This document shows, one piece after another, positions 60,648 to 63,927 of a stretch of 64,000 nt of DNA (position 1 is its first letter; every line of letters begins with the position of its first letter). The DNA is from Tilletiaria anomala UBC 951 (lineage: Eukaryota > Basidiomycota > Exobasidiomycetes > Georgefischeriales > Tilletiariaceae): assembly GCF_000711695.1 (NCBI RefSeq), contig NW_013546981.1, positions 62,001 through 126,000 on the forward strand. Direction: 5' to 3'. The notes beneath the pieces were generated by a model. The model had not been told where the DNA came from, ran no database searches, and was given only the letters and a program-made list of their open reading frames with translations. The translations under genes were made by a program, and so were the position numbers.

Positions 60648-63600
60648 CTAGAGGACACGCTCCTTGCGCAGGTCAAAAATGCCTACAATGTGTCCGCAAC
60701 GAGCCATGCGCAGACCACCAGACTCCTCCGCCATCCGAACGCCCCACTTCCGAGCCGACGATACTGCCACGCCGCTCCGCTCCTCCGCATTGTCCTCTCC
60801 TGCTTCAAATGGAATGTGAAGCGGCGCAAACGCCAGCCGATACTTGCTCAGATGATCCTTCTTGCTCTGGACCTGTTGCTCGGCCACAATGCGCTGCAGC
60901 AGTGTGTATTCGGCGGTCATGAGGATCGCGTGGCCGCCCGGCTTGAGTAAGGCGAGCAGCGCCGGGAGGAGGTTCCTGTATAGCCTGTGGACCTGATTCT
61001 TCGTGAGCACCCTGTGGCCCCACGGCAGGTCGGTGACGACGGTGTCGATCGTCTCACGGCCGCCAAGGAAGGCGGCCATGGCGTCAACATCCGTCGCGTC
61101 CTGCGTGCTCGTCTTGATGCGGTCATGCAGGTTGCACAGAGTGATGGCTGCGTCGGCTTTAGCAATTGAGGCCGTGTCGATGTCACAAGCAAACACCTTG
61201 AAGTCCAGTTGCAGATTCTGCAAGGTTGCAACCATCTCTGTTGCGATACGCCCGACACCGACGCAGGGCTCGAGTAACTTGACCTCAGACTGGCCTGGTT
61301 CCGGGAAGACTCGAGCAAGGTTCGCAAGAGTGTGCGCTCTGTAGAAAGCCAGGGCAGTTCCGCCACCTGCAGCTGCGCCAGTGAGAGCCGCTGGTCGAAG
61401 CTGTGACTCGCCGACGGGTGGATCCAGTTCCAGGAGAACGAACAGCGCCCCTGCCGGGGGTGGACCGTGCTCGATGAGGTTGTTGGGACGCTCATTGGCC
61501 CCAAAATTCGGCACCATCTTGAACACGATGTTCAATTGTGGCGCCTTGAGATCCACGGTCCATTCATTGCGTGGATCATCCGCCTTGGTGTTTCCATTAA
61601 GCCAGCTCCACACGCAATCGCTCAACTCATATTCCATGGTCTTGGAGATGAGCGTCGGGAGAAGGTATCCGCAGCGATTGAAAGTGCATCGAAAACTTTG
61701 TAGTGGCGCGTTGTATTGGGTTTTCCTGCGTTGTCGCCAGAACGCCAACGCTTGATCTCGCGCTGGCAGGCAATCATCCCATAGCTTTCGGATGAGTGCT
61801 ATGAGGTCCCTTTCAGACTGCGGCAGTTTCTCCGGGTGATCAGATGAGGAATGCTCCTGCTCCACTTCTGCAGTGTGCTCTGCATTGCTTTTCGGTGCTG
61901 CAGATTTTGCTTTGACTGATGCAATTTTCTCCCGTCGTCTGCTCCGACCTCCAGAGCGTCGATCGTCGCGCAGTCGTTGCACCACCTCTTGAGCCAGGGG
62001 TGCTTCGCCCATTACGAGGTGCGCTGCTTCTGCACTGCGCACTTGTCCATCCTGCCAGGCATCAACGAGAGTCGCGCTGATTCCGTCCTCCACCTGTGCT
62101 CGTACGTGCCCGGCTTGAAGCCATGCTCCGAGCGGTGGTGGCCGCACCATTGCACCGCGCTCTTTCAGCACACGCTGCAGATCCTGCTCAGCAAAGTCCT
62201 CGAGACCATGGAAAACCTCAAAGAGCACAGGGAATGGGCAGGCTGGTGCAGGAGCACTTGACGAGGATGGGGCGCTGCACATGTCCAGCAGACGAACTGT
62301 AGTATCCTGTTCTTGCTGTGGGGGCACAGCCGGATGCGCTGGATCACTGAGTTCAACACCTGGATCCAGAAACTCCTTCGAGAAGCCAACAGGTTCTGCT
62401 GGAGGTGCGGATCCCGATGAAAACATTTGACCGCCTCGTTTGCGTTCGGCTTGTGAGATTGCTTCTTGCCAGTCTTCGCGTGCCCACCACGGCAACTCAT
62501 CCTCATAGCACCACTCTTCTGTTTCGTACTTCATCGCATGAAGATAAATGAATAGCTCTTCTGGTCTGGGATCAGGAAGAAGCGGGATCTTGCACTCGTC
62601 GCACATGCCGCATGCTTCTGTCTCCACGCGCTTGAGCCAGCGGTTGCTTTGGGTGTCAATTTCGATCCCGAGGCTCTTGAGAACTTCTTCGCCCTTGCCT
62701 TTTGCAGGGCGCGCGGTCTGAGCATTTGCCCCGGGTAAATCGGGAAGTTCAAGCTCGGCCTCTTGGAGAAGGTGGCCGTAGATGACTTCGTCCTTCCACC
62801 GCGCCCAGTCCTCCTGTCCGTCCCGCTGCGCCTTGATGGCGGCGATGATCGCATCCACCTTCGAGGAACCGGTCGAGCCGGTTCCCCCCTCTCCCTTCCA
62901 GCTTTCAGTACTCACTGTCTCTTTCGCCATGTCCTCCTGCGACCTGCCTTCCCAGATTGCGTGACCGTAGACGGGGTCGTTGCATATCGGATGGCCGAGA
63001 TACTGGACATGTACCCTAATCTGATGTGTTCGCCCAGTTAGCGGTCTACACCATACAACGCTGGTATCCGTTGCAGAGTCATAGGAGAGACGATGGAAGA
63101 TGGTCTTACACGGCTTCCCAAGCGGGTGTACGATGTTGACGCCTGACTGACGGTCGACGCTCAATATTGGTTGTTCGCACGTCACTTCCTTCCCGTCTCC
63201 GGGAAAGCGCCCACGTACTCTGCAGACGTAGTTCTTGCGAACGTCGCCAGATAAATAGACAGCAGCAAGCTTTGAAGCTGCTTCCTTCTTTGTGGAAAGT
63301 ACCATGACTCCAGATGTAAGACGGTCGAGTCGATTGGCAGTGTGGACTTGTGATATACCGTGGTCTGCTTTCAGCATCTCAATGAGCGTTGAGCGGTGAT
63401 ACCTCCCGGCGCTGTGGACGGGTATGCTGCCTGGTTTGATCACCACAAGTCTTCCGGCATCGTCGTCTCTGTGCAGTATCCGGATGGGCTCTGCGGTGAC
63501 GGGAGGCTCATGTCGATGCACACGGTTGACAATTAAGTCGCCATCTTTCACGATCTGCCGCGGTGATGCTTTAGAGCCGTTGACTGTGCAGACGCCTTTG

Positions 63601-63927
63601 TGAATGGCCCACAGGTAGTATTCCTTGGTGCGATCGCGGAATTCAGTGGTGAAGATCTCGAGCAACTCGCGTCCGATCCACCGTTGTTTTGCGTGTGTGG
63701 TATAGTCATGCCTAGCCGCAAAAGGTCATTGAATGTCAGTCACGAAGAATGTGTGCTGCTAACTCATACAGATTGACGCACCAATATGGTTCTTGCGTGC
63801 GCAGACGAAGACCCGGCAGGGCTGTCAATCACCGCATAAAAGTCGCACACACAGTCAGCTTTCGCACACCAGCGGTAGCATCGCAGTGCTCACCTGAGGC
63901 GCTGCCCTCGGCATTCTCCGTGCCCAT
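60648..63927 (-). CDS. Fused tRNA pseudouridine synthase (Pus9/Rib2 type) and THUMP-type RNA guanine methyltransferase
   Basis: Minus-strand exons 63927-63894, 63821-63782, 63711-60648 (1045 aa from this ATG). The frame stays open upstream to the window edge, so the true start may lie outside. The RluA-type half (about 20-275) has PYWHDYTTHAKQRWIGRELLEIFTTEFRDR, an S4-like segment (CTVNGSKASPRQIVKDGDLI), the catalytic HTANRLDRLTSGVMVL (Asp154) and LTGRTHQIRVHVQYLGHPICNDPVYG. A Cys cluster ACGMCDECKIPLLPDPRPEEL with LHAMKY follows, as in Pus9. From about 518 a second enzyme starts: FEVFHGLEDFAEQDLQRVL (THUMP), then LLEPCVGVGRIATEMV (SAM site, near 841), CDIDTASIAKADA and TDLPWGHRV (catalytic, near 918), as in THUMPD3/TrmN. 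Both halves modify RNA, Pus9 at tRNA U32 and THUMPD3/Trm14 at G6. Exon 3 carries both without a stop. Confidence 0.88.

What the first reader, a model, noticed from the sequence alone, without database searches (positions are those of the whole stretch)
60648..63927. Single-chain fusion of a Pus9/Rib2-type pseudouridine synthase with a THUMP RNA guanine methyltransferase
One 3-kb exon encodes a complete RluA-type synthase (HTANRLDRLTSG, TGRTHQIRVH) followed in frame by a complete THUMP/Rossmann methyltransferase (EPCVGVGRIATE, TDLPWGHRV). In the organisms I know these are separate proteins. Yeast Rib2 shows that a Pus domain can be fused, but to a deaminase. A bifunctional enzyme placing pseudouridine 32 and N2-methylguanosine at 6 on the same tRNA would be a new arrangement.
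Basis: partly seen in the sequence, partly recalled or inferred. Interest (0 to 1): 0.85.

Follow-up and report, generated by a model that had tools for sequence, protein, structure and literature searches.

The report
Fused tRNA pseudouridine synthase and methyltransferase
In smut fungi and their relatives two RNA-modifying enzymes that are normally separate proteins are joined in one chain, and in the skin yeasts Malassezia the second enzyme has lost its active-site motifs while the joined protein has been kept, which makes the purpose of the joining testable.

Summary
The fusion is real. The window is Tilletiaria anomala UBC 951 (Ustilaginomycotina). Three exons (63927..63894, 63821..63782, 63711..60648, minus strand) reproduce the annotated 1045-aa protein exactly; both enzyme halves lie in the last exon without a stop.

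It is not unique: 55 of 120 listed homologues carry the second half; the named carriers are Ustilaginomycotina except one fern entry. They form one clade on a tree of the synthase half (28 of 50 rows, 100/99); 13 of 18 separate synthases measured end about where the extension begins.

The first half is a complete Rib2/Pus9-type RluA synthase. The second has a clear UPF0020 methyltransferase core nearest TrmN/Trm14 and AviRa; its THUMP part is only weakly supported. Its SAM and catalytic motifs stand in 39 of 39 full-length non-Malassezia rows and 0 of 13 Malassezia-type rows, which keep the rest of the half.

Best reading: one chain making pseudouridine 32 and an N2-methylguanosine, probably near tRNA position 6; substrates are inferred. 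Structure prediction and the Trm11 check could not be run. Ten searches of an open-access library found no description of this fusion.

The parts
63894..63927 (-). exon 1 (start codon at 63927)
   Evidence: only GT..AG model that reproduces P0001 exactly
63822..63893 (-). intron 1, GTGAGC..ACAG
63782..63821 (-). exon 2
63712..63781 (-). intron 2, GTGCGT..CTAG
60648..63711 (-). exon 3: nearly the whole protein, both enzyme halves, stop at 60648
63003..63449 (-). RluA-type pseudouridine synthase core (PF00849; P0001 residues 113-261)
   Evidence: 80.9 bits, cut-off 26.8; TIGR00005 219.8 bits, cut-off 192.7
63309..63335 (-). catalytic motif NRLDRLTSG (residues 151-159; the role of its Asp is recalled from the RluA family)
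   Evidence: exact in 52 of 54 fusion-type rows, NRIDRLTSG in the other 2
62460..62603 (-). C-terminal tail of the synthase (C..C, LHA, PWWA..DW); 13 of 18 separate synthases measured end 26-32 residues after its LHA motif
62229..62459 (-). linker between the halves, poorly conserved
61866..62228 (-). start of the second half, NFLD-like (ferredoxin-like) region beginning VLFEVFHGLEDFAEQDL
   Evidence: Gly and Glu-Asp of this motif invariant in the 25 aligned rows; NFLD identity is inferred and weak
61416..61694 (-). THUMP-like region (FRCTFNRCGYLLPTL ...)
   Evidence: aligned with the THUMP stretch of TrmN; Pfam THUMP not reached
60831..61313 (-). Rossmann methyltransferase core (PF01170/UPF0020)
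   Evidence: 54.2 bits, cut-off 22.3; profile match to TrmN E 2.1e-17, 0 of 100 shuffles as high
61251..61271 (-). SAM-binding motif I, EPCVGVG
   Evidence: E[PSA]CxGx[GA] in 39 of 39 full-length non-Malassezia rows, absent in 13 of 13 Malassezia-type rows
61017..61034 (-). catalytic motif IV, TDLPWG
   Evidence: PWG in 39 of 39 non-Malassezia rows, preceded by Asp in 37 and Glu in 2; PWG absent in 13 of 13 Malassezia-type rows

Best explanation
A bifunctional tRNA-modification enzyme that arose once, by addition of a UPF0020/TrmN-like N2-guanine methyltransferase (NFLD-like, THUMP-like and Rossmann parts) to the natural C-terminus of the Rib2/Pus9-type synthase, before the sampled Ustilaginomycotina classes split. 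The synthase half makes pseudouridine 32 in the anticodon loop; the second half grips the acceptor/CCA end and methylates N2 of a guanosine in or next to the acceptor stem, most likely position 6 or 7. The variable linker lets one chain address both ends of the L-shaped tRNA. In Malassezia the methyltransferase has lost its SAM and catalytic motifs, yet the rest of the half is retained, so there the added half most likely serves as a tRNA-binding or structural part of the synthase. Shown: architecture, single reading frame in the gene, single clade, motif conservation and loss. Inferred: substrates, positions, THUMP fold, RNA-binding role.
For: Gene model identical to the annotated protein, both halves in one exon. 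The second-half profile hits 55 of the 120 proteins listed (P0001-P0054 and P0071) and none of the other 65. Fusion rows including Malassezia form one clade, 100/99, with the separate synthase of Wallemia as sister (92/87), in a 50-row tree of rows I picked from the 123 held. Pairwise distances of the two halves agree, Mantel r 0.96, 0 of 999 permutations, n 39. 13 of 18 separate synthases measured end 26-32 residues after the LHA tail motif (the other five 43-230); five fusions measured run 518-759 residues further. Synthase motif in 54 of 54 rows (2 with Ile for Leu), methyltransferase motifs in 39 of 39. Core matches TrmN (m2G6): PDB 3tma E 6.6e-10 with the profile, hhalign E 7.8e-14 and 2.1e-17 for the core alone. 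Malassezia, 13 rows: THUMP-like part 0.52 mean identity against 0.35 linker and 0.34 former motif-I stretch.
Against: Pfam THUMP is not reached by any of 25 members, by the window's half or by a consensus. THUMP by profile comparison is weak: P 0.01-0.02 and hhalign probability only 2-4%, though 0-1 of 100 shuffles score as high; RlmL alone gives nothing (P 0.32-0.41), and a second bacterial UPF0020 protein aligns over the core only. No Trm14 cut-off is met (37.1 bits against 280); TIGR01177 matches as many members and leads for the best member and the consensus; AviRa, an rRNA methylase, is the best PDB match of the consensus. Two rows have Glu for Asp in motif IV. Whether a separate Trm11 exists in this genome could not be checked. 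A 648-aa second-half protein on a 47-kb contig (P0123) may be a separate gene or a split gene model; unresolved. The retained Malassezia half evolves fast (0.34-0.52 identity against 0.74-0.82 for the synthase half), so decay is not excluded.
Confidence: 0.6

Rival explanations
1. The fusion is real but the methyltransferase acts elsewhere: guanosine 10 of tRNA (Trm11 role), U6 snRNA (THUMPD2 role) or rRNA (AviRa/RlmL role).
For: TIGR01177 15 of 25 and Trm14_Arch 16 of 25 members match almost equally; TIGR01177 best for the consensus; AviRa matches 17 of 25 members at E <= 0.1 and is the best PDB match of the consensus, E 1.6e-9; only one PF01170 locus at E <= 0.001 in the own genome, so a separate Trm11 was not seen.
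Against: The profile search of the PDB puts TrmN first. One search searches exon by exon, so an intron-split Trm11 could be missed. A pseudouridine-32 synthase as partner points to tRNA (inference).
Confidence: 0.27
2. The second half is mainly an RNA-binding or stabilising arm for the synthase; methylation is secondary or already lost.
For: In 13 of 13 Malassezia-type proteins the SAM and catalytic motifs are gone while roughly 400 residues of the half are kept, the THUMP-like stretch best.
Against: In 39 of 39 other full-length proteins the motifs are present, which would hardly persist without use. Applies to Malassezia, hardly to Tilletiaria.
Confidence: 0.1
3. Two enzymes are made from one gene: an internal start or cleavage in the linker separates them.
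For: The linker is poorly conserved. Nothing here measures the protein.
Against: One exon, no stop; one clade keeps both halves in one frame; no second-half-only protein clearly identified (P0123 unresolved).
Confidence: 0.04
4. Assembly or annotation artefact joining two genes.
For: None found.
Against: Single open exon and the same order in dozens of entries from several sources.
Confidence: 0.01

Closest known systems
Rib2/Pus8 and Pus9 (yeast pseudouridine-32 synthases), RPUSD2 of animals
   Same: RluA-type core; listed matches without the second half are 31-59% identical over 23-55% of the query, among them proteins with a PF00383 deaminase domain, i.e. Rib2-type fusions, and RPUSD2
   Different: partner is a methyltransferase at the C-terminus, not a deaminase
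TrmN / Trm14 / THUMPD3 (m2G6 tRNA methyltransferases)
   Same: UPF0020 core, TrmN the best PDB profile match; order NFLD-like, THUMP-like, Rossmann would agree with the architecture described in PMC9957541 (passages read)
   Different: THUMP not detectable by Pfam, motif IV DLPWG, divergent motif I, long charged insert, fused to a synthase; Trm14 curated cut-off not met
RlmL/RlmK of E. coli (fused m2G2445 and m7G2069 methyltransferases)
   Same: precedent for one chain carrying a UPF0020-type methylase and a second RNA-modifying enzyme (annotation)
   Different: partner is a second methyltransferase, substrate is rRNA
PUS10
   Same: a pseudouridine synthase with a THUMP-related part
   Different: different synthase family, no methyltransferase; PMC9957541 calls it the only THUMP-related pseudouridine synthase (passage read)
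AviRa (rRNA methylase, PDB 1o9g/1o9h)
   Same: Rossmann core with a similar TDLPYG motif; best PDB match of the consensus; PF11599 in 17 of 25 members at E <= 0.1, best 4e-8
   Different: a short protein (250-residue chain) without the preceding region; PF11599 cut-off not reached by the window protein (22.0-24.2 against 25.7 bits), PF01170 stronger

Membership tests
RluA family, Rib2/Pus9-type pseudouridine-32 synthase | PF00849 and TIGR00005 above curated cut-offs | tested here: met
   80.9/26.8 bits and 219.8/192.7 bits
RluA family, Rib2/Pus9-type pseudouridine-32 synthase | catalytic RLDxxTSG motif | tested here: met
   NRLDRLTSG in the window protein; 52 of 54 rows exact, 2 with Ile
RluA family, Rib2/Pus9-type pseudouridine-32 synthase | grouping with fungal Pus9/Rib2 proteins | tested here: met
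   within the basidiomycete clade of a 50-row tree, Ascomycota Pus9/Rib2 types and RPUSD2 as the outgroup I set
RluA family, Rib2/Pus9-type pseudouridine-32 synthase | makes pseudouridine 32 | not testable with these tools
   needs tRNA analysis
UPF0020 (PF01170) methyltransferases | PF01170 above cut-off | tested here: met
   54.2/22.3 bits; 19 of 25 members at E <= 0.1; the set holds 6 Malassezia rows, none of which one search lists with PF01170
Trm14/TrmN/THUMPD3 m2G6 methyltransferases | curated Trm14 cut-off (NF040721) | tested here: not met
   37.1 of 280 bits; the model is for archaea
Trm14/TrmN/THUMPD3 m2G6 methyltransferases | THUMP domain (PF02926) | tested here: not met
   not reported for any of 25 members or the consensus, while TrmN itself scores 51.9 bits
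Trm14/TrmN/THUMPD3 m2G6 methyltransferases | NFLD plus THUMP by profile comparison | tested here: inconclusive
   colinear alignment with TrmN from THUMP through the core; alone P 0.01-0.02, probability 2-4%, 0-1 of 100 shuffles as high; RlmL alone no match
Trm14/TrmN/THUMPD3 m2G6 methyltransferases | [D/N]-x-P-[F/Y/W] catalytic motif for amino-group methylation (pattern recalled) | tested here: met
   TDLPWG in the window protein; 37 of 39 rows with Asp, 2 with Glu
Trm14/TrmN/THUMPD3 m2G6 methyltransferases | makes m2G6; human enzyme works with TRMT112 | not testable with these tools
   needs biochemistry; the search of the genome for a TRM112 gene did not complete
AviRa rRNA methylases | PF11599 above cut-off | tested here: not met
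   22.0-24.2 against 25.7 bits for the window protein; not counted per member

The most novel reading that the evidence does not exclude
One chain spans the tRNA from CCA end to anticodon loop: the acceptor-gripping half positions the synthase at U32 and the synthase half does the anticodon-arm reading that Trm112 is thought to do for related methylases, so that methylation and pseudouridylation are coupled. Malassezia then turned the enzyme into a pseudouridine synthase guided by a dead methyltransferase, a natural experiment that separates RNA gripping from catalysis.
Probability: 0.22. Interest if true: 0.72.

Novelty: new variant of a known kind. Interest (0 to 1): 0.52.

Why it matters
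A pseudouridine synthase joined to a THUMP-like methyltransferase would link two tRNA modifications at opposite ends of the molecule. A 2023 review names PUS10 as the only THUMP-related synthase (PMC9957541, passage). THUMPD3 has no yeast orthologue (PMC10415138, passage), so a fungal methyltransferase of this kind could open m2G6 to fungal genetics. Loss of the methyltransferase motifs in Malassezia, with retention of the rest, makes the question of what enzyme fusions are for directly testable. Databases already list both domains on one entry, under names such as 'related to DRAP deaminase RIB2', which hides the methyltransferase.

Tried and rejected
Standalone relatives of the second half: a profile search gave none at E <= 0.001 among the 7994 candidates scored; a search with the core region gave 3 at E <= 0.01 among 2246. 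P0121 and P0122 look to me like partial gene models, P0123 is unresolved. Both searches depend on shared 5-residue words, so distant homologues could be missed, and one search did not even return Malassezia rows that are in its length range, which shows its limits.

Assembly or annotation artefact: rejected. The fern entry P0025 (Adiantum) falls inside the fungal clade; I read it as contamination, not tested further.

THUMP: Pfam on single members and on consensus sequences, then profile comparison with TrmN and RlmL; weak. Two other fetched loci were of little use: L006 aligns over the core only and the L007 ORF was not used.

Mitochondrial targeting: in the rows where a PYW-type motif was found, the stretch before it is mostly 12-35 residues with no clear presequence by eye; P0003, P0007, P0027, P0030 and P0037 have 55-95; four rows gave no motif. 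Not conclusive.

tRNA genes in the window: none.

Literature: 10 searches of the open-access library found no description of this fusion. Passages, not whole texts, were seen of PMC11301382, PMC9957541, PMC10415138, PMC12255305, PMC7822408, PMC4033218 and PMC8708615; other listed papers were seen as listings only.
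Full report
Observation. The minus-strand frame 60648..63665 is open for 1005 codons. The closest database entry, P0001, is the annotated pseudouridine synthase of Tilletiaria anomala UBC 951, 1045 residues, 100% identical, on a contig of 130224 bases, the same length as the contig that holds the window. A script that tried GT..AG models from the ATG at 63927 found one and only one that gives P0001 exactly: exons 63927..63894, 63821..63782, 63711..60648. The junction lies well inside the last exon. PF00849 and PF01170 are both above their curated cut-offs on this chain.

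How widespread. The whole-length search scored the 7996 candidates sharing most words, found 200 at E <= 0.001 and listed 120. A profile of the second half matches 55 of these 120 (P0001-P0054 and P0071) plus the three proteins, and none of the other 65 at E <= 10. The named carriers belong to Ustilaginomycetes, Exobasidiomycetes and Malasseziomycetes, three of the five named classes of Ustilaginomycotina (four carriers looked up, the others placed by recall), plus one fern entry that sits inside the fungal clade and is probably contamination. Named proteins without the second half come from Agaricomycotina, Pucciniomycotina, Wallemia, Ascomycota and vertebrates (names, placement by recall). 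Moniliellomycetes and Peribolosporomycetes were not seen among the names.

One origin. A 50-row IQ-TREE of the synthase core, with rows I picked from the 123 proteins held, puts all 28 fusion rows (20 intact-type, 8 Malassezia-type) in one clade with 100/99 support; Wallemia, with a separate synthase, is their sister at 92/87; Malassezia is one clade at 100/99. The deeper relations among the fusion groups are unresolved. Pairwise distances in the two halves agree, r 0.96, 0 of 999 permutations, 39 rows, as expected of parts inherited together. Of the rows P0055-P0120, 18 had a recognisable LHA tail motif: 13 end 26-32 residues after it, the other five 43, 58, 67, 107 and (Calocera) 230 residues after it, without detectable second half. 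Five fusion proteins measured run 518-759 residues further. So an enzyme was added to the natural end of a complete enzyme.

First half. TIGR00005 is met (219.8 bits against 192.7). The catalytic motif is NRLDRLTSG in 52 of 54 rows and NRIDRLTSG in 2. Relatives include proteins with a deaminase domain in front (PF00383 plus PF00849), the Rib2 type. In S. cerevisiae Rib2/Pus8 and Pus9 make pseudouridine 32 in cytoplasmic and mitochondrial tRNAs (PMC7822408, passage). Only one PF00849 locus was found in the genome at E <= 0.001, searched exon by exon. Pseudouridine 32 is therefore the likely product; it is inferred.

Second half. The Rossmann core is secure: PF01170 at 54.2 bits; TrmN (3tma) first in a profile search of the PDB at E 6.6e-10, the two AviRa entries next, Trm14 (3tlj) fourth at 3.5e-5; and a comparison with the TrmN of Thermus composti at E 7.8e-14 over THUMP and core and 2.1e-17 for the core alone, 0 of 100 shuffles as high. 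Which branch it belongs to is open: Trm14_Arch matches 16 of 25 members and TIGR01177 15 of 25, the window protein far below both cut-offs; with a consensus TIGR01177 leads and AviRa is the best PDB match. The N-terminal part is weakly supported as NFLD-THUMP. Pfam THUMP is never reached. The alignment with TrmN runs from its THUMP domain into the core. The part on its own gives P 0.01-0.02 and a probability of only 2-4%, with 0 or 1 of 100 shuffles as high, and RlmL alone gives nothing. A review describes the ferredoxin-like, THUMP and Rossmann order, CCA capture by THUMP and access to G6 for TrmN and Trm14 (PMC9957541, passages). I therefore say it works like a TrmN/Trm14 enzyme; I do not file it as a member.

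Motifs and the Malassezia loss. Of the 54 rows P0001-P0054, two are truncated before the core (P0030, P0033). In the 39 other non-Malassezia rows motif I fits E[PSA]CxGx[GA] in 39 of 39, and motif IV ends in PWG in 39 of 39, with Asp before it in 37 and Glu in 2. In the 13 Malassezia-type rows (5 named Malassezia, 8 unnamed; 8 of the 13 were in the tree) motif I is gone and PWG is absent in 13 of 13; in ten of them only 67-73% of the core positions are covered, with the gap after the place of motif I, and in three 92%, without a recognisable motif. The rest of the half is still there. Within Malassezia the mean pairwise identity is 0.82 for the synthase core, 0.74 for the synthase tail, 0.52 for the THUMP-like part, 0.45 for the NFLD-like part, 0.45 from former motif IV to the end, 0.35 for the linker and 0.34 for the former motif I stretch. 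So methylation is very probably lost while the remaining half is kept under some constraint. Slow decay is not excluded.

Mechanism. I propose one chain that grips the acceptor end with its second half, methylates a guanosine there (position 6 or 7 most likely), and reaches the anticodon loop with its first half through a flexible linker. The geometry is plausible because Trm112 is thought to reach the anticodon loop while THUMP holds the CCA end in related complexes (PMC9957541, passage). In Malassezia only the gripping or structural role would remain. The steps shown are architecture, descent and motif retention or loss; the substrates, sites and RNA gripping are inferred.

Limits. Only one PF01170 locus was seen in the genome, but an intron-split Trm11 would escape that search. 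No fungal DNA other than the own genome was read, so exon structure elsewhere rests on deposited protein models.

Novelty. Ten searches of an open-access library found no description; most subscription journals are not in it. Databases already list both domains on one entry. I rate it a new variant of a known kind: a new pairing of two known enzyme families, shared across a subphylum's sampled classes, with a natural loss of one activity.

Noticed in passing
window 58112-60648: An 837-aa ORF with no Pfam match at E <= 1e-5 lies tail-to-tail with the fusion gene, stops only 22 bases apart; by eye its last part may contain an unspliced intron.
   Followed up: partly
P0047 and P0052 (Malassezia cuniculi, Malassezia sp. 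CBS 17886): These two deposited models are 1302 and 1410 aa and carry an extra PF20151 domain; probably a further gene joined by annotation.
   Followed up: no
P0025 (Adiantum nelumboides): A fern entry falls inside the Ustilaginomycotina fusion clade; probably fungal contamination of the fern assembly.
   Followed up: partly
P0003 and P0004: Catalytic motif IV reads SELPWG, Glu instead of Asp, while P0007, which groups with P0004 in the tree, has TDLPWG; activity may be altered in this group.
   Followed up: no
P0003, P0007, P0027, P0037 N-termini: Longer N-terminal extensions (55-95 residues) than the usual 12-35, with several Arg in P0037 and P0007; possible mitochondrial forms by alternative start.
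   Followed up: no
window 25481-26941, 32037-36146, 40274-42535, 43261-44823, 46730-47821, 50108-51253: Neighbouring long ORFs match GMC oxidoreductase, protein tyrosine phosphatase, VTT domain, peroxin-3, transketolase and HSP70; ordinary genes with no evident link. ORFs 13558-16530 and 19904-21496 gave no Pfam match.
   Followed up: partly
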